DNA from: Marinigracilibium pacificum
GTDB lineage: Bacteria; Bacteroidota; Bacteroidia; Cytophagales; Cyclobacteriaceae
Reading direction: 5' to 3'
NCBI RefSeq assembly: GCF_012926615.1
Contig: NZ_JABBNU010000002.1
Span: 124,001-188,000 of the forward strand
Length of the DNA: 64,000 nt
Positions 38,224 through 50,833 of the stretch are shown here, piece after piece. Both the position numbers and the translations under genes were made by a program. The notes under the pieces are model-generated. The model had not been told where the DNA came from and did no database searches. It saw only the letters and a program-made list of their open reading frames with translations. Each line of letters opens with the position of its first letter. Positions within the stretch are counted from its first letter, which is position 1.

Positions 38224-39495
38224 TCATATCAAATACTGAAATAAATCTTGTTTCTCATTTAGGTACTCATAAGTGATATTATATGAGTCCATTCTCTTTA
38301 AAAGTCCATTAAAATCACTTGCCTGCTTCAATTCCAGGCCTACTAATGCCGGACCTTGCTCTCTATTGTTTTTCTTAGAGTATTCAAAGTGAACGATGTC
38401 ATCTCCTGGGCCAAGTACATTGGTCAGGAACTCGCGTAATGCTCCTGCACGTTGTGGAAATCGCACAATGAAATAATGCATCAAGCCTTCATATAATAAG
38501 GCTCTTTCCTTGATTTCTTCGGTTCTGGTAATATCATTATTGCTTCCCGAGATTACTGCAACTACTGTCTTGCCTTTGATTTCATCTTTTAATTGTTCTA
38601 GAGCAGCAACAGTTAAAGCACCAGCTGGTTCGACAATGATTGCGTCATCATTATAAAGATTTAAGATCGTAGAACATATTTGTCCTTCCGGTACGGTGAT
38701 GACTCTGTCGATTTTATCTTTCAGGATTTCAAAATTCAGGCTGCCGATTTGTTTCACTGCAGCACCATCAACAAACTTATCGATTTTATCCAGAGTGACA
38801 ACTTCACCTTCTTCGATCGATTTTGTTAGTGAAGGAGCGCCCAGCGGTTCAACTCCTATAACTTTTGTTTTTGGAGAAAGCGTTTTGAAAACTGTAGTGA
38901 TTCCCGCTGCCAGTCCTCCGCCGCCAACAGGAACTAGTAAGTAGTCTATTTCCTCCGGACTATCCTGAAGTATCTCAAGTCCGATTGTTCCCTGGCCTTC
39001 GATGATTTCTTTGTGATCGAAAGGAGGGATAAACGTCATGTTGTTTTGGTCACAGTAATGACGGGCATGTTTATATGCGTCATCAAAAGTATCTCCGGTG
39101 AGAAATAGTTCGACATTATCTTTGCCAAACATTTTAACCTGGTTTACTTTTTGTCCTGGAGTTGGTTCAGGCATAAATATGGCTGCTTTAATGCCCAGTT
39201 GTGAACAAGACATTGCAACACCCTGTGCATGATTACCAGCACTGGCACAAACAACACCCGATTTTTGCTGTTCTTCATCAAGCTGCGAAATCATATTGTA
39301 AGCACCCCTGATTTTATACGATCTAACAGTTTGAAGATCTTCTCTCTTTAGCATGATTTTACAATCATATCTTTCATTTAGCCTGATACTATCAGTTAAA
39401 GGTGTTTCTTTAACTACAGCTTTCAATCTAAATGAGGCTGTTTTTATATTTGACAGGGATACTTGTGAATTTTTGACTTCCGCTTCCATGGCCAT
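38224..39495 (-). CDS. ilvA: Threonine ammonia-lyase (threonine dehydratase)
   Basis: About 423 residues from the ATG at 39495 (MAMEAEVKNSQ). A frame-open ATG at 39531 adds 12 non-conserved residues. The PLP fold has the cofactor lysine in VRSYKIRGAYN, CASAGNHAQGVA, the glycine loop in VPVGGGGLAAGI and AVISGSNND. A single ACT-like regulatory region sits at the C-terminus (HYFIVRFPQRAGALREFLTNVLGPGDD), as in the shorter isoleucine-sensitive or biosynthetic forms. It converts threonine to 2-oxobutanoate, the committed step to isoleucine. It is last in the ilvE-D-B-N-C-A operon, about 80 bases after ilvC. Confidence 0.96.
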   Translation of the reverse strand: MAMEAEVKNSQVSLSNIKTASFRLKAVVKETPLTDSIRLNERYDCKIMLKREDLQTVRSYKIRGAYNMISQLDEEQQKSGVVCASAGNHAQGVAMSCSQLGIKAAIFMPEPTPGQKVNQVKMFGKDNVELFLTGDTFDDAYKHARHYCDQNNMTFIPPFDHKEIIEGQGTIGLEILQDSPEEIDYLLVPVGGGGLAAGITTVFKTLSPKTKVIGVEPLGAPSLTKSIEEGEVVTLDKIDKFVDGAAVKQIGSLNFEILKDKIDRVITVPEGQICSTILNLYNDDAIIVEPAGALTVAALEQLKDEIKGKTVVAVISGSNNDITRTEEIKERALLYEGLMHYFIVRFPQRAGALREFLTNVLGPGDDIVHFEYSKKNNREQGPALVGLELKQASDFNGLLKRMDSYNITYEYLNEKQDLFQYLI

Positions 39496-39575
39496 TCTGT
39501 TAAAAGAATAGAGTGCTACTGATATGGTCAATTGACCTTACAGCAGGCACCCTATATGAGGAAATTTGAAAATAA

Positions 39576-40640
39576 TTAAGATTCTACTGGTTGTTGTGCG
39601 TTTTCAGGTCTCAGCTTTCTTACTTCTGCACCTGCCTGCCACATTTCAGAGTTATGAAGCTCTGATAATTCTTCTTCAAGCTTTTCACGATAATCAGGCT
39701 GACTGTTTGAGTCGATTGATCGTTGTGCTTCTTCACCTGAAGCTACGCTATCATATAATTGATTGAATACCGGTTTTACTGCATCTCTGAATTTGTCTTT
39801 CCAGTCAAGAGCTCCTCTCTGAGCAGTGGTGCTACAGTTAGCATACATCCAGTCCATACCATTTTCAGCAATTAGTGGCATCAATGATTGAGTGAACTCC
39901 TCTACTGTTTCATTAAATGCTTCAGAAGGAGAGTGTCCTCTTTCACGAAGTACTGTAAACTGTGCTTCAAATAGCCCCTGGATAGCACCCATCAACGAAC
40001 CTCTTTCACCAGTAAGATCGCTATATACTTCTTTTTTGAATGTGGTTTCAAAAAGATATCCCGAACCAACCGCAATTCCTAGTGCGTGTGCTTTACTATA
40101 AGCATTGCCAGTTGCGTCCTGATGTACAGCGTAGCTTGAGTTCAACCCTTTTCCTTCTACGAAAAGTCTGCGAAGGCTGGTTCCCGAACCTTTAGGGGCT
40201 ACAAGGATAACGTCAACATCTTTTGGAGGGATAATATTAGTTCTGTCACTATAAGTTACGGCAAATCCGTGAGAGAAATAAAGTGTTTTTCCAGGTGACA
40301 GATTTTCTTTTATTGTAGGCCATACTGCTATCTGGGCAGCATCTGACAACAAGTAACAGATAATTGTTCCTTTTTGAACTGCTTCTTCAATTGAGAAAAG
40401 GTCAACACCGGGAATGAACCCGTCTTCAACTGCCTTGTCCCAGCTTTTACTTGGTTGTCTTTGACCAACGATAACTTTGATGCCATTATCTTTCATGTTA
40501 AGTGCCTGGCCAGGCCCTTGTACACCATACCCGATAACTGCAACAGTCTCGTCTTTTAATACTTCCTGTGCTTTTTCCAAAGGAAATTCTTCCCTTGTTA
40601 CAACCTGTTCTTCTACTCCGCCAAAATTGATTTTAGCCAT
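39576..40640 (-). CDS. ilvC: Ketol-acid reductoisomerase
   Basis: The protein has 354 residues, the short form found in Cytophagales and Bacteroides rather than the long E. coli form. The NADPH fold has VAVIGYGVQGPGQALNMKDNG near 34, HGFAVTYSDR, then VAPKGSGTSLRRLFVEGKG. The knotted helical domain has DLTGERGSLMGAIQGLFEAQF with the metal-binding acidic residues, ESFNETVEE-type sequence and YANCSTTAQRGALDW. It isomerises and reduces 2-acetolactate and 2-aceto-2-hydroxybutyrate. Gene position is fifth in the operon, 34 bases after ilvN. The low start-codon ambiguity makes the call firm. Confidence 0.97.
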   Translation of the reverse strand: MAKINFGGVEEQVVTREEFPLEKAQEVLKDETVAVIGYGVQGPGQALNMKDNGIKVIVGQRQPSKSWDKAVEDGFIPGVDLFSIEEAVQKGTIICYLLSDAAQIAVWPTIKENLSPGKTLYFSHGFAVTYSDRTNIIPPKDVDVILVAPKGSGTSLRRLFVEGKGLNSSYAVHQDATGNAYSKAHALGIAVGSGYLFETTFKKEVYSDLTGERGSLMGAIQGLFEAQFTVLRERGHSPSEAFNETVEEFTQSLMPLIAENGMDWMYANCSTTAQRGALDWKDKFRDAVKPVFNQLYDSVASGEEAQRSIDSNSQPDYREKLEEELSELHNSEMWQAGAEVRKLRPENAQQPVES

Positions 40641-40674
40641 GATATTTCCGATTTAATTTAATGATTCTATTTTA

Positions 40675-41223
40675 TTATGATACCAGGCTTAACGCTTCAA
40701 GCTCTTCAAGGAATGAAACGGTTTGCCTTTTTGATTTTGATATTGCTATTCGGCCGGATTTGACAAATTCCTGTACGCCAAATGGTTTTAATTGATCAAA
40801 CAGGTTTAGTATTTCATGACTGTGACCTGTTTTTTCGATGATTGTATATTCTTCTCCAACTGTCAATACCCGGGCGCCACTACTCCTTACAAGGTTTTCA
40901 ATATGATTACTCGATGTGATCATCTTTGTAGGGAGTTTATACAAAGCGATTTCCTGATAATGGATTTCGCTGTCGTCATATAAAAATGCTCCGAGGACTT
41001 CAATTATTTTTTTAATTTGCTTGGTTACTTTTTCAAGCTTTTCACGGGTACTCTTCACAACGATTGTAAATCGGCTTACACCATGTACTTCAGTTTCAGA
41101 TACATTGATAGCCTCAATATTGATCTTTCTTCGAGTGAATATGATGGTAATCCTGTTTAACAAACCTGATTTGTTTTCAGTAAGGATCGATAAGGTGAAT
41201 TCTCTGGTTTCTTCCGTGTTCAT
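40675..41223 (-). CDS. ilvN: Acetolactate synthase small (regulatory) subunit
   Basis: This 182-residue protein has an N-terminal ACT domain (FTLSILTENKSGLLNRITIIFTRRKINIEAINV) that binds valine at the subunit interface for feedback inhibition. A second ACT-like C-terminal half follows (ITSSNHIENLVRSSGARVLTVGEEYTIIEKTG). It lies 3 bases after ilvB, so large and small subunits are made from adjacent coupled genes. Length fits IlvN/IlvH of about 160-185 residues. Confidence 0.96.
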   Translation of the reverse strand: MNTEETREFTLSILTENKSGLLNRITIIFTRRKINIEAINVSETEVHGVSRFTIVVKSTREKLEKVTKQIKKIIEVLGAFLYDDSEIHYQEIALYKLPTKMITSSNHIENLVRSSGARVLTVGEEYTIIEKTGHSHEILNLFDQLKPFGVQEFVKSGRIAISKSKRQTVSFLEELEALSLVS

Positions 41224-41226
41224 AGC

Positions 41227-42966
41227 TTAACCAAGTAATATGTTTGAAACTGATTCTCCTGTAGGGATCATCGGGAAAACGTTTTCTTCTTTCTCTACTT
41301 CTATTTCAAGTAGATAGGGGCCATCATGATTTAACATGGTGCTTATAGCTGTTGACAAGTCTTCGCGTTCTGAAATTTTTTGACCTTGAATACTGTATCC
41401 CTCAGCAATTTTTATAAAATCCGGGTTGACCATTTCGGTACTGCTGTATCGTTTGTCAAAAAACAGCTGCTGCCATTGTCTAACCATGCCTAAAAAGTTA
41501 TTATTCAGGATGATGATTTTTACTGGTATTTTGTACTGGAAAATGGTTCCAAGCTCTTGAATTGACATCTGAACTCCACCATCTCCAATAACCGCTACCA
41601 CTTCACGATCATCTTCGCCCAGTCTGGCGCCTATTGCTGCCGGAAGAGCAAAACCCATTGTGCCAAGGCCTCCTGAGGTTATGTTACTTCTCTTGCTTCG
41701 GAACTTATAATATCTGGTTGTAACCATCTGATGCTGTCCTACATCAGTAACAACAACGGCATTGCCTTCAGTTTGCTGAGATAAGTTTTCGATTACCTCG
41801 GCCATTTTTATCTGTCCTGTGGAAGGGAACTTTTCTTTTTGAGCTATTTTCTCGTCTTCGATTTTTTCACATTCACGAAATTCCTGAAGCCATTCGGCAT
41901 GCATTTTTGGCTTTACATGTTCCGTCAATGCTTGAAGCGCCTCTTTTGCATCAGCGTGAATAGCTATGTCTGTTTTTACATTTTTATCGATCTCTGCTTC
42001 GTCAATTTCTATATGGATTACTTTAGCCTGTTTGGCATACCTGTTCAGATCACCGGTTACACGGTCATCGAAGCGCATTCCAACAGCAATCAAAACGTCG
42101 CACTCGTTAGTTTTTATATTAGGACCATAGTTACCATGCATTCCAAGATATCCTACATAAAGCGGATGATCCGGAGGGAAAGCAGAAAGTCCTAATAAAG
42201 TGCTTGCTGCAGGTATTTGAGCCTTTTCTGCAAATGCCAAAAGTTCTTCCTGTGCATCAGAAATAATTACTCCATGACCGAAAACGATATAAGGTTTTTT
42301 TGCTTCATTGATTATAGCAGAAGCAGCCAGAATATCTTTTGGCTTGATTACCGGTTTAGGATGGTAACTTCTGATGTTTATGCATTTTTTATATTCATAA
42401 ACAAATTTATTTACCTGAGCATCTTTGGTAATATCTATAAGTACTGGTCCCGGACGACCGCTTTTTGCTATATAAAATGCTTTTGCAATTATTTCAGGGA
42501 TTTCTGATGCATCAGTAATCTGATAGTTCCATTTTGTAACAGGCATTGAAATTCCTACCACATCAGTTTCCTGAAAAGCATCAGTTCCTAATAGGGGTGA
42601 GAAAACCTGTCCTGTTATACATACAATTGGAGTTGAATCAATCTGGGCATCTGCTATACCTGTGATCAGGTTAGTAGCACCGGGACCAGATGTTGCCAGG
42701 CAAACTCCGGTTTTTCCGGATACTCTGGAATATCCCTGTGCAGCATGAACTGCTCCTTGTTCGTGTCTTACAAGGTAATGTTTAAATGTATCCTGAAAAT
42801 CATAAAGTGCATCATAAACAGGCATAATGGCTCCACCCGGATACCCAAATACGGTATCCACACCTTCATTAATTAATGATAGGATTAAAGCCTGGGCACC
42901 TGATATTTCAGTGCCTTCTAAGTTTTTTGGTGTTTCCTGTTTGGCGGTTTCCGTAGCTGTTTCCAT
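41227..42966 (-). CDS. ilvB: Acetolactate synthase large (catalytic) subunit
   Basis: This 579-residue ThDP/FAD enzyme has the N-terminal Pyr domain with VFGYPGGAIMPVYDAL near 38 and the catalytic glutamate in RHEQGAVHAAQGY. The central FAD-type domain contains FGHGVIISDAQ and GMRFDDRVTGDL. The C-terminal PP domain has the metal-binding IGDGGVQMSIQELGTI and NNNFLGMVRQWQQLFF. It condenses two pyruvates, or pyruvate with 2-oxobutanoate, for valine/leucine and isoleucine. It is 4 bases after ilvD and 3 before ilvN. Confidence 0.97.
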   Translation of the reverse strand: METATETAKQETPKNLEGTEISGAQALILSLINEGVDTVFGYPGGAIMPVYDALYDFQDTFKHYLVRHEQGAVHAAQGYSRVSGKTGVCLATSGPGATNLITGIADAQIDSTPIVCITGQVFSPLLGTDAFQETDVVGISMPVTKWNYQITDASEIPEIIAKAFYIAKSGRPGPVLIDITKDAQVNKFVYEYKKCINIRSYHPKPVIKPKDILAASAIINEAKKPYIVFGHGVIISDAQEELLAFAEKAQIPAASTLLGLSAFPPDHPLYVGYLGMHGNYGPNIKTNECDVLIAVGMRFDDRVTGDLNRYAKQAKVIHIEIDEAEIDKNVKTDIAIHADAKEALQALTEHVKPKMHAEWLQEFRECEKIEDEKIAQKEKFPSTGQIKMAEVIENLSQQTEGNAVVVTDVGQHQMVTTRYYKFRSKRSNITSGGLGTMGFALPAAIGARLGEDDREVVAVIGDGGVQMSIQELGTIFQYKIPVKIIILNNNFLGMVRQWQQLFFDKRYSSTEMVNPDFIKIAEGYSIQGQKISEREDLSTAISTMLNHDGPYLLEIEVEKEENVFPMIPTGESVSNILLG

Positions 42967-42970
42967 ATTT

Positions 42971-44644
42971 TTAACTGTCGGTTACGCAGCCCTGATCTGC
43001 AGGTGCTACACTTTTAGCATATTTGTATAATATTCCTGATGTCTTTTTTAAAGGTGGAGCCTGCCACTTGGCTTTTCTCCTGTTTATTTCATCTTCAGAT
43101 AGATGAGCAGTAATTTCTTTACTAATCCCATCAATGGTAATCTTGTCACCATCTTCAAGCAGGGCAATTAATCCGCCCTCCTGAGCTTCGGGTGTTATAT
43201 GCCCGACGACAAAGCCATGAGTACCACCTGAGAAACGACCGTCGGTAATTAGTGCTACTTCATTACCAAGACCTGCACCCATAATCGCAGAGGTCGGTTT
43301 AAGCATTTCGGGCATTCCTGGTCCACCTTTTGGACCTTCATATCTGATGACTACTACATCGCCTGCTTTTACTTTTCCTTCACGAATGCCATCATTTGCA
43401 GCATATTCCCCATTAAATACTCTTGCAGTTCCGGTGAATTGTTCTCCTTCCTTACCCGTGATTTTTGCTACCGCTCCTTTTTCAGCCAGGTTGCCATATA
43501 AAATCGCCAGATGTCCTTCCTTTTTAACTGGATTGCTCAGTGGCTTTATTATCTCCTGTCCAGCTTGTAGTGAAGGGACAGATTCAAGGTTTTCTTTTAT
43601 TGTTTTGCCTGTTACTGTTAAGCAATCTCCGATAAACAGGCCTTCTTCAATAAGCATTTTCATAACCGCAGGAGTTCCTCCCACATGATGCAAGTCTTCC
43701 ATTACATATTTGCCACTTGGCTTTAAGTCGGCAATGAAAGGTGTTTTTGCATTTATTTCTTTTATATCATTCAGAGTAAAAGGTATCTCAAATGCTTTTG
43801 CCACAGCAATCATATGTAGCACTGCATTAGTAGAACCACCAAGAGCAATAATTAACCTGAAAGCATTTTCAAAAGATTCTCTGGAAACGATATCTCTCGG
43901 TTTTAAATCTTTTTCAAGTAAAAGTTTCAACGCTTTACCAGCATTAACACATTCAGCAATTTTAACATCTCCTTCAGCAGGGTTTGATGAAGAAAAGGGT
44001 AGAGTTAATCCCATTGCTTCCATAGCAGAAGCCATGGTGTTTGCTGTGTACATACCGCCACAAGCACCAGGGCCTGGGCATGCATTCATTACAACACCTT
44101 TGAAATCTTCTTCGTTGATAGTGCCGGCAAACTTTTGCCCCAGTGCCTCAAAAGCAGAAACGACGTCAAGCTTTTTACTTTTATAACATCCGGGTTTGAT
44201 TGTTCCTCCATATACCAGAACAGCAGGTCTGTTTAATCTACCAGCCGCAATCATTGCACCAGGCATATTTTTATCACATCCGACTACAGCGGCAAATCCA
44301 TCGTAATTCATTCCGGATACAACAGTCTCAATACTGTCAGCAATAATGTCTCTGCTCGGAAGTGAATATCTCATACCATCCGTGCCCATTGAGATCCCAT
44401 CAGATACTCCAATAGTGTTGAAAATTAAGCCAACAAGGTCTTCACTTAAAGTTCCTTTCTTTACCTCTTTGGCCAGGTCGTTAAGATGCATGTTACAAGG
44501 GTTTCCTTCGTACCCTGTACTTACAATACCTACCTGTGGTTTTTGAAGGTCTTCCGGACTCAAGCCGATCGCATGAAGCATGGCTTGAGCTGCCGGTTGC
44601 GTTGGATCTTGCGTAACCGCTTTACTGTATTTATTTAAAGTCAT
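42971..44644 (-). CDS. ilvD: Dihydroxy-acid dehydratase
   Basis: This 557-residue Fe-S enzyme has cluster ligands in [25 protein letters not shown] and [17 protein letters not shown]. Also present are [14 protein letters not shown], the [30 protein letters not shown] region and [10 protein letters not shown]. It dehydrates 2,3-dihydroxy-3-methyl(valerate) intermediates to the keto acids. It lies 6 bases after ilvE and 4 before ilvB. A 158-codon frame on the opposite strand inside this gene is a coding shadow. Confidence 0.97.
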
Positions 44645-44650
44645 GTGTGA

Positions 44651-45541
44651 TTATACCAGATTAAATGCTGTAAGATGATCTTTCGTTACTTTTCGACGAT
44701 ACATTAAAAAGAGGCTGTATCCGATGCTTTCTTCCCAAGGGATATGCATCTTTTTGCCTTCGATAGATTTAATTCCTGTGACCTCTATCGCAGTCCCGGT
44801 AAAGAATGCACTATCCGCATCCAGGACCTCTTCTGGCTTGATGTCTTTTTCAACAATCTTAAAACCAGTTTCGTTGGCAAGATCAATAATAGTCTGTCGG
44901 GTGATACCCGGCATGATGTATCCTTTTTTAGGGGTATAAAGTACTTCGTCTTTTTCGTAGAAGAAATTAGCAGCTGGTCCTTGGGCAATAAACCCATTCA
45001 TGTCTAGCATTAATGCTTCGTCAAACCCTCGGTCTCTGGCATCATTAGAAGCAAGAATAGAGTTTACATAATTGCCAACAACTTTTGATTCGATATGTGC
45101 TCCTGCAGGGTTAAGTTTTTCATACTTGCTAATATGAATGTCAAGCGGGTCTTCTCCAAGGTAGTTGTTCCATTCCCATGCAGCCATTAAAAAATGTGCG
45201 GCAGGGGCAGTTCTCAAGCCCATATAAGGTCCTGCATAAACTAGTGGACGGATATATGCATTTTGAAGATTATTTTTTTTAAGCAATTCATAAGCTAGCT
45301 CGGTAAGTTCGTTTTCAGAAAACGGTAAATTGAGTCTGTGCTTTTTAGCTGAATTAATTAATCTTTCGAAATGTCTGTTGGGTTTGAAAATTTTTGGGCC
45401 TTCATCAGTTTTGTATGCACGCATTCCTTCGAATACACCAAGGCCATAGTGCATAGTCTGATTGTAAAGACTTACTTCGGCATCTGCTGCTTTTCGCCAC
45501 TCGCCGTCAAATAGAACGATGCTTTTTTTAGAGAAGTACAT
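44651..45541 (-). CDS. ilvE: Branched-chain amino acid aminotransferase (class IV)
   Basis: This 296-residue fold-type IV PLP enzyme has the motifs HYGLGVFEGMRAY, NAYIRPLVYAGPYMGLR and the cofactor lysine in HIESKVVGNYVNSILA. FDEALMLDMNGFIAQGPAANFFY and GIMPGITRQTI-type sequence follow (here YIMPGITRQTIIDLA), then FFTGTAIEVTGIKSIEGKK. It transaminates the keto acids to Ile, Val and Leu. It is the first structural gene of the operon and sits about 35 bases downstream of the attenuator terminator, so its expression should be the most directly controlled. Confidence 0.96.
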   Translation of the reverse strand: MYFSKKSIVLFDGEWRKAADAEVSLYNQTMHYGLGVFEGMRAYKTDEGPKIFKPNRHFERLINSAKKHRLNLPFSENELTELAYELLKKNNLQNAYIRPLVYAGPYMGLRTAPAAHFLMAAWEWNNYLGEDPLDIHISKYEKLNPAGAHIESKVVGNYVNSILASNDARDRGFDEALMLDMNGFIAQGPAANFFYEKDEVLYTPKKGYIMPGITRQTIIDLANETGFKIVEKDIKPEEVLDADSAFFTGTAIEVTGIKSIEGKKMHIPWEESIGYSLFLMYRRKVTKDHLTAFNLV

Positions 45542-45571
45542 ATATCGGTTGCTTATTTAGATTACAAATTT

Positions 45572-45612
45572 TATTAAAGAAAAAAGCCGTCTCTTATGGG
45601 AGAACGGCTTTT
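45572..45612 (-). terminator. Attenuator terminator of the ilv operon
   Basis: Minus-strand reading: AAAAGCCGT, a bulged T, CTC, loop CCATAA, GAG, ACGGCTTTT, then TTCTTTAATAA. The arms are 45604-45612 plus 45600-45602 against 45582-45590 plus 45591-45593. It stands between the leader peptide and ilvE, not after a gene. TCTCCC in the 5' arm and loop (45603-45598) is complementary to GGGAGA at 45633-45628, giving a competing antiterminator. Confidence 0.85.
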
Positions 45613-45636
45613 GATACGGCAATAACATCTCCCTGG

Positions 45637-45702
45637 TCAATGTCCGATGACAATGATCACGATATTAATCAGGATAATTACGATGTTACTTGCTTTCATC
45701 AT
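45637..45702 (-). CDS. ilv operon leader peptide (Ile/Val/Leu-rich, 21 codons)
   Basis: A minus-strand frame of 21 codons starts with two consecutive ATG codons (45702-45697) and ends with TGA at 45639-45637. The peptide begins MMKASN and then runs IVIILINIVIIVIGH: 8 Ile, 3 Val and 1 Leu in 21 residues, with Ile coded by both ATC and ATT. The terminator arm begins 24 bases after the stop, and ilvE follows. This is the arrangement of a classical ribosome-mediated attenuator, in which stalling on scarce Ile- or Val-tRNA prevents terminator formation. The peptide is also simply hydrophobic, so a short membrane peptide is an alternative, though the position argues against it. Confidence 0.85.
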   Translation of the reverse strand: MMKASNIVIILINIVIIVIGH

Positions 45703-45727
45703 TTCAATTTAACCTTTATGCTTATTA

Positions 45728-45758
45728 CAATATTAGTTCTTGTGATTTTAGGTTACAA
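45728..45758 (-). promoter_or_regulatory. Candidate promoter of the ilv operon
   Basis: On the minus strand a TTG (45758-45756) is followed after 20 bases by TAATATTG (45735-45728), seven of eight matching the Bacteroidota -7 consensus TAnnTTTG. Initiation would fall near 45722, about 20 bases before the leader ATG, a suitable distance for an attenuated operon. The stretch from here to 45979 holds nothing else I can identify. Confidence 0.45.
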
Positions 45759-45979
45759 GCAAAATATTAATTTTTTATTTTTAAAATATGCAAAATAATC
45801 ATTTACTAACGGTTGTTAGTGGAGAATATAATTTTACATTTATAATTAACTGTAGAATTTATTAAGAGATTGTTAATCAGCTGTGGGATATGATGATTAG
45901 AATTGTAATATATGTAAAAAAACGACTATTTAATAATCGTTTTGATACTTATGAGGCTAACGAGTGTTAAATATGTAAA

Positions 45980-46693
45980 TTATGAGTGATTTTCTGTCAA
46001 TTTAGCAACAGGAAATGTTTTCTTTTCTTCGTGACCGCAATATCTGCACTTATACGTTTTGATAAGTTTACCTTCTGTAGATAGGCTTGGAGGTTTGATA
46101 AGGTCTTCTTTTTCTACTTTGAATGTATTGTAGTTGCATTCCGGACATCTGGAGGCAATCATATGTCCCTGATACTTTTCAATAATGGTGTATCCAGTGG
46201 CTTCATCAATCCAGACGTCATAGTCTACTGAATAGACATTTTCTTCAGTCTGCATTCCTTCATCAAGGTAGACATCTTCTTCCTCTTCGCTTAGCAGTTT
46301 CATTTTTCTGCCGGTTTTTGGAGAAACTCTTGGCTTATATCTTAGCCTTTTAAGTCTTTTTTCCAGATGAAACGGGTAATAGTATTTCAGGTAGGATTTG
46401 ATAACGATGCTTAGGATTAATCCGGCCATTACTGTCAGGAAGATTCTAACAAGCCACCATAATAATTTTGAATCGGGGAAAAGTGTATTGATAAAAAAAG
46501 CACCGGCAATAATTAAAGCATAAGAACCAAACTCAAGTGTACGGACCTCATATCTGCTTATATACTCATAAGCCTTTTTTGGAGACAGGAAAAAATTAAC
46601 TTTTATAACATGATATCCAATGATAATTGCAGATACAGTTAAAAATATTAATCCACTAATCATTAAAAAATCGGTCCACTCTTCAAACATCAT
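45980..46693 (-). CDS. Membrane protein with C-terminal zinc ribbon, unrecognised
   Basis: About 237 residues from the ATG at 46693 (MMFEEWTDFLM). A longer frame opens at 46741 inside the terminator of the neighbouring peptidase and is rejected. Three hydrophobic helices are visible (MISGLIFLTVSAIIIGYHV, FGSYALIIAGAFFINTLF, WWLVRIFLTVMAGLILSIV). A basic cytoplasmic segment (EKRLKRLRYKPRVSPKTGRK) and a zinc ribbon near the end (SRCPECNY ... YKCRYCGHEEKK) follow. Function unknown. It is on the minus strand downstream of the S9 peptidase terminator and upstream of the ilv promoter region, transcribed alone. Confidence 0.7.
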   Translation of the reverse strand: MMFEEWTDFLMISGLIFLTVSAIIIGYHVIKVNFFLSPKKAYEYISRYEVRTLEFGSYALIIAGAFFINTLFPDSKLLWWLVRIFLTVMAGLILSIVIKSYLKYYYPFHLEKRLKRLRYKPRVSPKTGRKMKLLSEEEEDVYLDEGMQTEENVYSVDYDVWIDEATGYTIIEKYQGHMIASRCPECNYNTFKVEKEDLIKPPSLSTEGKLIKTYKCRYCGHEEKKTFPVAKLTENHS

Positions 46694-46731
46694 TACAATT
46701 TTTGATTTCCACAATTCGACCGAAAATAGTA

Positions 46732-46773
46732 AAAAAAACAATAGCGGGAAAGAATTTTCTTAAACCCGCTATT
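46732..46773 (-). terminator. Rho-independent terminator of the S9 peptidase gene
   Basis: Minus-strand AATAGCGGG (46773-46765) pairs with CCCGCTATT (46748-46740) around a 16-base loop and is followed by GTTTTTTTTACT. It lies 14 bases after the peptidase stop. T-rich sequence on the plus-strand side makes it potentially bidirectional. Confidence 0.9.
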
Positions 46774-50740: not shown

Positions 50741-50833
50741 AATAAAAAATGTATTAAAAATTATTCCTACTCGTTTGGCTTTTCAGATTCGCCCCGTTTT
50801 TGATGGTTTCCGGACTCCATTAATATTATGTTC

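What the first reader, a model, noticed from the sequence alone, without database searches (positions are those of the whole stretch)
45572..45758. Ile/Val-rich leader peptide with terminator and antiterminator: a classical attenuator controlling a Bacteroidota ilv operon
Seen directly: a 21-codon frame (45702-45637, minus) with 12 of 21 residues Ile, Val or Leu. It is followed after 24 bases by a GC-rich hairpin with a T-run, then ilvE and the five other ilv genes. GGGAGA at 45633-45628 can pair with TCTCCC in the terminator's 5' arm and loop, so the two structures exclude each other. Established: ribosome-mediated attenuation by BCAA-rich leader peptides controls ilv/leu operons in Proteobacteria. 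Inference: the same logic works here, in a phylum that initiates translation mostly without Shine-Dalgarno pairing. I do not know whether this instance has been described. A region 1 that would sequester the antiterminator was not clearly seen.
Basis: partly seen in the sequence, partly recalled or inferred. Interest (0 to 1): 0.75.

Follow-up and report, generated by a model that had tools for sequence, protein, structure and literature searches.

The report
Ribosome-sensing switch before ilv genes
A tiny Ile/Val-rich reading frame and a terminator hairpin sit before the genes that make branched-chain amino acids; comparison with relatives indicates that a ribosome stalled for lack of those amino acids turns the genes on, a classic kind of switch that turns out to be common, and sometimes doubled, in this bacterial phylum.

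Summary
The minus strand carries MMKASNIVIILINIVIIVIGH* (45702-45637; 12 of 21 residues Ile, Val or Leu), then 24 nt, then a terminator hairpin, then ilvE-ilvD-ilvB-ilvN-ilvC-ilvA. The same arrangement lies upstream of ilvE in 101 of 119 regions (window included), against 21 of 504 and 25 of 1234 control tiles. It is present in 70 of 74 ilvE genes followed by ilvD and in 0 of 8 that are not.

In 131 units the terminator's 5' arm pairs better with its own antiterminator strand than with foreign strands (mean -14.2 versus -9.4 kcal/mol). The last Ile/Val codon lies 12-17 nt before that helix in 65% of units (null 16%), wherever the stop codon is: about where a ribosome stalled on a starved codon would just leave the helix free. 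In the window this edge is codon 19. A candidate region 1 exists but is weakly supported.

Ribosome-mediated attenuation is a known kind, already inferred in a flavobacterium (PMC9723704). Additions here: wide extent in the phylum, the footprint-like edge, a five-fold bias to the Val codon GTC, and two units in tandem in 16 of 115 loci. No expression data were available.

The parts
45805..45820 (.). perfect inverted repeat ACTAAC-N4-GTTAGT, possible operator upstream of the promoter; function unknown
   Evidence: conserved in two congeners, in one of them with a changed loop; 0.08 expected per window (one mismatch allowed); single exact match of the extended pattern in the genome
45728..45758 (-). 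candidate promoter: TTG 45758-45756, 20 nt, TAATATTG 45735-45728 (5 of the 6 near-invariant bases of the F. johnsoniae -7 box)
   Evidence: both boxes invariant in three Mangrovivirga genomes around a diverged spacer of equal length; predicted start near 45723 is inference
45637..45702 (-). leader reading frame MMKASNIVIILINIVIIVIGH*
45646..45684 (-). run of control codons (codons 7-19; Ile/Val/Leu with one Asn); codon 19 begins 15 nt before the antiterminator helix
45682..45693 (-). candidate region 1 (GCAAGTAACATC), pairs with 45629-45619 in the full-length fold
   Evidence: weak: among congeners one pair-preserving change (G-C to G-U) and one change at a bulged base
45619..45633 (-). region 2: GGGAGA 45633-45628 (antiterminator strand) overlapping GATGTTATTGC 45629-45619 (partner of region 1)
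   Evidence: GGGGGA in one congener keeps the pair as G-U
45598..45612 (-). region 3: terminator 5' arm and start of loop, containing TCTCCC 45603-45598 that pairs with GGGAGA
45580..45593 (-). region 4: terminator 3' arm GAGACGGC and T-run
44651..45541 (-). ilvE, first structural gene
38224..44644 (-). ilvD, ilvB, ilvN, ilvC, ilvA, all on the same strand

Best explanation
It is a ribosome-mediated transcription attenuator of the ilvEDBNCA operon. Shown by sequence: a promoter-like element, a short Ile/Val-rich frame, a region 2 just after its stop codon, and a terminator whose 5' arm can pair either with region 2 (antiterminator) or with its own 3' arm (terminator). Inferred working: when Ile- and Val-tRNAs are charged, the ribosome runs to the stop codon, covers GGGAGA and the terminator forms. 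When the ribosome stalls at a control codon up to codon 19, GGGAGA stays free, pairs with TCTCCC as soon as that is transcribed, the terminator cannot form in time, and RNA polymerase goes on into ilvE. What happens without translation is open: a region 1 candidate would favour termination in the full RNA, but the partial RNA folds as antiterminator. The sensing step, the response to amino acids and the coupling of ribosome and polymerase are inferred, not measured.
For: Conservation with drift: 101 of 119 ilvE-upstream regions carry leader plus terminator (119 excludes 2 regions with under 150 nt upstream, includes the window itself and some genomes fetched twice). 70 of 74 ilvE genes followed by ilvD have it (64 distinct sequences) and 0 of 8 not followed by ilvD do; 4 more with too little sequence downstream have it. 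131 distinct units: antiterminator helix -14.2 kcal/mol with the cognate arm against -9.4 for foreign pairs, 95% at or better than the median foreign strand, 46% in the best 5%; similar in 64 non-redundant units (95% and 48%). Ile/Val codon share rises from 0.04 at 3-5 nt to 0.72 at 15-17 nt before the helix. The last Ile/Val codon lies at a median of 14, 14 and 13 nt whether the helix starts inside the frame, spans the stop or lies at or after it (48, 44 and 39 units); 65% at 12-17 nt against 16% for shuffled tails, KS p about 1e-22; 59% against 14% in the non-redundant set. Window simulation with an assumed 13-nt reach: antiterminator forms with the ribosome at codons 5-19, not at 20-22; the Ile/Val run ends at 19. 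Control codons: GTC is 5.0 times and CTA 2.7 times commoner than in genes of the same loci, GTC raised in 74 of 79 units.
Against: No RNA or expression data. In the window alone the antiterminator is only moderately specific: 8.8% of foreign strands pair as well by contiguous helix and 36% by duplex energy; in congener L065 the finder preferred another helix. The terminator (-14.6) is more stable than the antiterminator (-11.3), and once the 3' arm is present the terminator is the minimum-energy fold at each ribosome position tried, so the switch must be kinetic. Without a ribosome the RNA up to the terminator loop folds as antiterminator, which does not favour default termination. Region 1:2 pairing is weak across units (24% in the best 5%, 72% at or below the median). 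18% of units have the last Ile/Val codon nearer than 12 nt (null 24%). 4 of 74 ilvE-ilvD operons lack a detected unit. The -7 box is one base off consensus. The simple terminator scan missed the hairpin. The window's own leader has no GTC bias (GTA, GTG and GTC once each).
Confidence: 0.88

Rival explanations
1. The frame encodes a functional small hydrophobic (membrane) protein, and the hairpin merely terminates or tunes its transcript.
For: Ile/Val-rich segments resemble a transmembrane helix; the frame is conserved in position.
Against: Peptide sequences share composition but little else between genera; uncommon synonymous codons are chosen; Ile/Val codons stop at a fixed distance from the RNA helix irrespective of the stop codon; recurrent C-terminal residues are those that the antiterminator strand encodes.
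Confidence: 0.04
2. The hairpin is a metabolite- or tRNA-sensing element (riboswitch or T-box) or a protein-binding attenuator, and the frame is incidental.
For: Structured 5' regions of other kinds occur; window fold z -2.64.
Against: No Rfam family reaches its gathering score in the leader, and no T-box or leader family is among the 7 weak matches up to E 10; spacer sequences differ between genera while the codon run is kept.
Confidence: 0.03
3. The operon is controlled mainly at initiation by a regulator binding the inverted repeat at 45805-45820; the leader is vestigial.
For: Perfect palindrome conserved in three Mangrovivirga genomes, once with a changed loop.
Against: Exact repeat found in 6 of 229 loci, all from three genomes of this genus including the window's own, whereas leader and terminator are kept widely; this could be an added layer, not an alternative.
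Confidence: 0.05

Closest known systems
Leader-peptide attenuators of ilvGMEDA, ilvBN and leu in Escherichia coli and Salmonella (named in PMC1183508, passages read; structural details recalled)
   Same: short frame rich in codons of the regulated amino acids, terminator, mutually exclusive antiterminator, biased control codons (CUA in leu)
   Different: compact layout with one spacer of about 23 nt, no Shine-Dalgarno enrichment, Bacteroidota-type promoter box, Val codon bias to GTC across the set, sometimes two units in a row; no Rfam leader family matches
Leader-peptide attenuation inferred upstream of amino-acid operons in Flavobacterium psychrophilum (PMC9723704, section 19 and passages read)
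   Same: same phylum, same proposed mechanism, from transcript maps and RNA structure
   Different: the main-text passages seen give no antiterminator geometry, codon analysis or ilv example; supplements not read
Bacteroid-trp motif RF01692 (table row seen in PMC2864571; its role as a trp attenuator is recalled)
   Same: cis-regulatory RNA of an amino-acid pathway in Bacteroidetes
   Different: other operon; no match in this window
ilvBNC attenuators of Corynebacterium (PMC11857589, PMC10272879; search listing and start of abstract only)
   Same: leader frame controlling an ilv operon
   Different: Actinobacteria; different operon
Tandem attenuators of Salmonella mgtCBR (PMC3641672; search listing and start of abstract only)
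   Same: two leader frames in one leader
   Different: other genes; here both units look alike and carry the same amino acids

Membership tests
ribosome-mediated (leader-peptide) transcription attenuator | short frame rich in codons for the operon's product | tested here: met
   12 of 21 residues; conserved in 101 of 119 regions
ribosome-mediated (leader-peptide) transcription attenuator | intrinsic terminator between frame and first gene | tested here: met
   -14.6 kcal/mol plus T-run; a simple bulge-free scan missed it
ribosome-mediated (leader-peptide) transcription attenuator | antiterminator that excludes the terminator | tested here: met
   cognate arms pair better than foreign ones across the set; moderate in the window alone (8.8% and 36% of foreign strands do as well)
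ribosome-mediated (leader-peptide) transcription attenuator | control codons placed so that a stalled ribosome frees, and a finishing one masks, the antiterminator | tested here: met
   12-17 nt edge; window simulation with an assumed 13-nt reach
ribosome-mediated (leader-peptide) transcription attenuator | region 1 that sequesters region 2 without translation | tested here: inconclusive
   present in the full-length window fold, absent from the partial one; weak support across units
ribosome-mediated (leader-peptide) transcription attenuator | operon makes the sensed amino acids | tested here: met
   ilvE, D, B, N, C, A
ribosome-mediated (leader-peptide) transcription attenuator | transcription starts upstream of the leader | tested here: inconclusive
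   promoter-like boxes upstream, enriched across leaders; no transcript data
ribosome-mediated (leader-peptide) transcription attenuator | read-through rises on starvation | not testable with these tools
   needs experiment
Rfam leader families and T-box | match to the covariance model | tested here: not met
   none at the gathering score; none among the 7 matches up to E 10 in 45500-46000

The most novel reading that the evidence does not exclude
In much of Bacteroidota, a phylum that starts translation mostly without Shine-Dalgarno pairing, ilv operons are governed by a compact attenuator in which regulatory codons end one ribosome half-footprint (12-17 nt) before an antiterminator strand that may be coded inside the leader peptide itself, Val is sensed largely through the codon GTC, and about one locus in seven carries two such attenuators in series. 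This would imply tight coupling of translation and transcription in the phylum.
Probability: 0.65. Interest if true: 0.65.

Novelty: new member of a known kind. Interest (0 to 1): 0.52.

Why it matters
Ribosome-mediated attenuation only works if the ribosome keeps pace with RNA polymerase. Its wide conservation in a phylum that hardly uses Shine-Dalgarno sequences makes coupling there directly testable with a natural reporter. The 12-17 nt edge gives an evolutionary estimate of the downstream reach of the Bacteroidota ribosome. The GTC and CTA bias would extend the selective-charging idea, worked out for E. coli, to a distant phylum.

Tried and rejected
Looking for the antiterminator only between the stop codon and the terminator gave at least 4 linking pairs in 87 of 131 units; 44 had fewer. 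Extending the search into the end of the reading frame found a complementary strand there for many of the rest, which also explains the recurrent C-termini such as GDR, GEW, PPG and KPAGA.

Other amino-acid operons of the same genome: trpE has a Trp-rich short frame (MTTMNIHNAWYWWYIER) before a terminator. hisG, the three HMGL-family genes (leuA type) and the two homoserine dehydrogenase genes gave nothing convincing in the 1.5 kb upstream of the match that I had; a miss there is weak.

The plasmid search with the first 104 residues of IlvE found 74 records, each below 60% identity, and was not used.

The idea that tandem units sense different amino acids was looked at and not supported: both members carry Ile and Val, though the first units of L068 and L069 are richer in Val and Leu. 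Some second units are weak: L066 scores only 6, and L080 (second), L162 and L184 have antiterminator ranks of 0.29-0.40.

The 7 Rfam hits (MicF, RcsR1 and others) are far below their gathering scores and were discarded.

A structural rather than tRNA reason for GTC is not excluded: Val before Ile uses GTC in 120 of 164 cases.

Full report
What is there. On the minus strand, between a gene without a confident family (45980-46741) and ilvE, lie in order: a perfect inverted repeat (45820-45805), a promoter-like pair of boxes (45758-45728), a 21-codon frame (45702-45637), a 24-nt spacer, and a hairpin with T-run (45612-45580). ilvE starts at 45541 and is followed by ilvD, ilvB, ilvN, ilvC and ilvA on the same strand. 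The organism is a close relative of Mangrovivirga halotolerans (ilvE 93% identical). No Rfam family reaches its gathering score in the leader.

Is it more than chance? I wrote a detector for a short frame with an Ile/Val/Leu-rich stretch followed by a hairpin and T-run, and ran it on DNA upstream of ilvE: 121 regions, of which 2 with under 150 nt upstream were left out; the window itself is among the 119, and some genomes occur twice, under both collections. At a score of 6 or more, 101 of 119 regions have it, against 21 of 504 tiles of the window, 25 of 1234 tiles elsewhere in the loci and 10 of 595 shuffles; at 8 or more, 72 of 119 against 6, 3 and 2. The tiles are mostly coding DNA. An internal control: among the 86 usable loci of L005-L092, ilvE followed by ilvD has the unit in 70 of 74 (64 distinct sequences among the 70), ilvE not followed by ilvD in 0 of 8, and 4 more with too little sequence downstream have it.

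How far does it reach? Of 247 phylum genomes at least 90% complete, 177 have an ilvD match. From the listed places I took DNA upstream of ilvD in 60 genomes, chosen for spread, mostly one per genus. 27 of the 60 have a unit scoring 7 or more directly upstream of ilvD or of a preceding ilvE (placement of ilvE); a few of these (L126, L128, L131, L152, L160) have long or odd peptides and may be chance. In family f23, which lies in another class of the phylum, 6 of the 9 genera taken have it. Of 6 genomes with ilvD only 43-46% identical, one (L160) has a candidate.

The antiterminator. For 131 distinct units I looked for pairing between the terminator's 5' arm and the DNA around the leader stop codon. 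The best strand may follow the stop, as in the window (GGGAGA four to nine bases after it), span it (for instance TGAGAAAGG with CCTTTCTCA), or lie in the last codons of the frame (for instance GGGGATGG-like strands with CCATCCCC). Cognate pairing averages -14.2 kcal/mol against -9.4 for foreign strands; 95% of units do at least as well as the median foreign strand and 46% are in the best 5%. In 64 non-redundant units the figures are -14.7, -9.5, 95% and 48%. Reversed arms give -9.9, and the true arm is better in 89%. The coded version explains why leader peptides of different genera end in similar residues (GDR, GEW, PPG, KPAGA): the RNA is constrained rather than the peptide.

The ribosome edge. 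Measured from the first base of each codon to the start of this helix, the share of Ile or Val codons is 0.04 at 3-5 nt, 0.10 at 6-8, 0.18 at 9-11, 0.45 at 12-14 and 0.72 at 15-17, then 0.5-0.8 out to 38 nt. The edge is at the same place in the three architectures (medians 14, 14 and 13 nt), although the stop codon shifts by up to about 20 nt between them. Shuffling the DNA between the last dense Ile/Val codon and the terminator spreads the distance: 65% observed against 16% at 12-17 nt, with 18% observed below 12 nt (null 24%); 59% against 14% after removing redundancy. With the starved codon in the A site this is about where the front edge of the ribosome would be (general knowledge from toeprinting, recalled). 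I regard this as the strongest evidence for the mechanism, because the helix search did not use the codons. Caveat: Ile and Val codons pair poorly with the arm, so their absence within the helix is trivial; the gap before it is not.

The window in particular. With 13 nt assumed between the A-site codon's first base and free RNA, RNA made up to the terminator loop forms the antiterminator when codons 5-19 are in the A site and not at codons 20-22, where GGGAGA is wholly or partly covered; the Ile/Val run ends at codon 19, 15 nt before the helix. Taken alone the window's helix is moderately specific: 8.8% of foreign strands do as well by contiguous helix and 36% by duplex energy. One congener keeps the helix with a G-U pair (GGGGGA), though there the finder chose another helix. 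With the 3' arm included the terminator is the best fold at each position tried; terminator -14.6, antiterminator -11.3, so the choice must be made during transcription.

Region 1. In the full leader without a ribosome, codons 4-7 (GCAAGTAACATC) pair with GATGTTATTGC and the terminator forms. But the RNA that ends at the terminator loop folds as antiterminator instead. Among congeners one change keeps a pair (G-C to G-U) and another falls on a bulged base. Across units, pairing of the leader's start with region 2 is better than foreign pairing on average (-15.3 against -12.1; 24% in the best 5%, 72% at or below the median). I leave region 1 open.

Translation and promoter. Among 62 non-redundant leaders with enough upstream DNA, 2 have a Shine-Dalgarno-like 4-mer (2.1 in shuffles) and 34 have A at -3, the base that PMC6847099 (passages, abstract among them) links to initiation in Flavobacterium johnsoniae. 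TAHHTTTG, the -7 consensus of that paper (passage), occurs within 120 nt upstream in 19 of 62 (shuffles mean 4.9, maximum 12), 15 of these within 26 nt of the start codon, and in 1 of 47 stretches between terminator and gene, which are shorter (mean 68 nt). In the window the box is TAATATTG, one base off.

Codon choice. Val codons in leaders are GTC in 54% against 8% in ilvE genes. Against genes of the same loci GTC is 5.0-fold, CTA 2.7-fold and ATT 1.5-fold over-represented, and GTC is raised in 74 of 79 units with enough data. The window's own leader is not an example: GTA, GTG and GTC occur once each. The genome has tRNA-Val with anticodons TAC and GAC. PMC1183508 (passages) reports that control codons in E. 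coli leaders are those whose translation is most sensitive to starvation, CUA being the most suitable for leu. GTC may play the same part here; a structural reason is not excluded.

Tandem units. 16 of 115 loci with a unit have two in series, some in two species of a genus (L068/L069, L077/L080, L186/L187), so they are fewer than 16 independent cases, and a few second units are weak (L066, L080, L162, L184). A detector hit by chance is expected in 2-4% of tiles at this score. Both members carry Ile and Val, so a series gate that lowers leakage is likelier than two specificities. The window has one unit.

Literature. Leader-peptide attenuation upstream of amino-acid operons was inferred in F. 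psychrophilum (PMC9723704, section 19). PMC7366714 (passages) mentions leader-peptide-like small frames in Bacteroides thetaiotaomicron. PMC2965389 (passages) stated in 2010 that, besides its own Firmicutes case, no leader-peptide system was known to its authors outside Proteobacteria and Actinobacteria. PMC2864571 (table row) lists a Bacteroid-trp RNA. Two papers that probably treat Bacteroidetes (PubMed 15135544 and 20198868) are not held; from recall, the abstract of the first names Bacteroidetes/Chlorobi. In the rows listed by searches I saw no study of ilv attenuation, of the edge or of tandem attenuators of branched-chain amino acid operons in this phylum; only an open-licence library was searched.

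Verdict. A real attenuator, ordinary in kind, supported far better by its relatives than by the window alone, and a member of a widespread set with some regularities I have not seen reported.

Noticed in passing
45805-45820: Perfect inverted repeat ACTAAC-N4-GTTAGT upstream of the ilv promoter, conserved in three Mangrovivirga genomes, once with a changed loop, and with a single exact match of the extended pattern in the genome.
   Followed up: partly
L100:1306-1360: Trp-rich short frame MTTMNIHNAWYWWYIER followed by a strong terminator upstream of trpE in the same genome: a second likely leader-peptide attenuator.
   Followed up: partly
L014, L016, L066, L068, L069, L077, L080, L108, L117, L134, L162, L169, L184, L185, L186, L187: Two leader-plus-terminator units in tandem upstream of the ilv operon; the second units of L066 and L080 and both of L162 and L184 are weaker.
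   Followed up: partly
leaders of 131 units: Val control codons are mostly GTC, the rarest Val codon in the ilvE genes of these loci; CTA is enriched among Leu codons.
   Followed up: partly
50760-50825: DUF805 RNA (RF03081) on the minus strand, well above threshold.
   Followed up: no
L195:1864-1942: tRNA-like gene downstream of tRNA-Val(TAC) for which ARAGORN reports a four-base anticodon (aata) and no identity; may be a degenerate tRNA.
   Followed up: no
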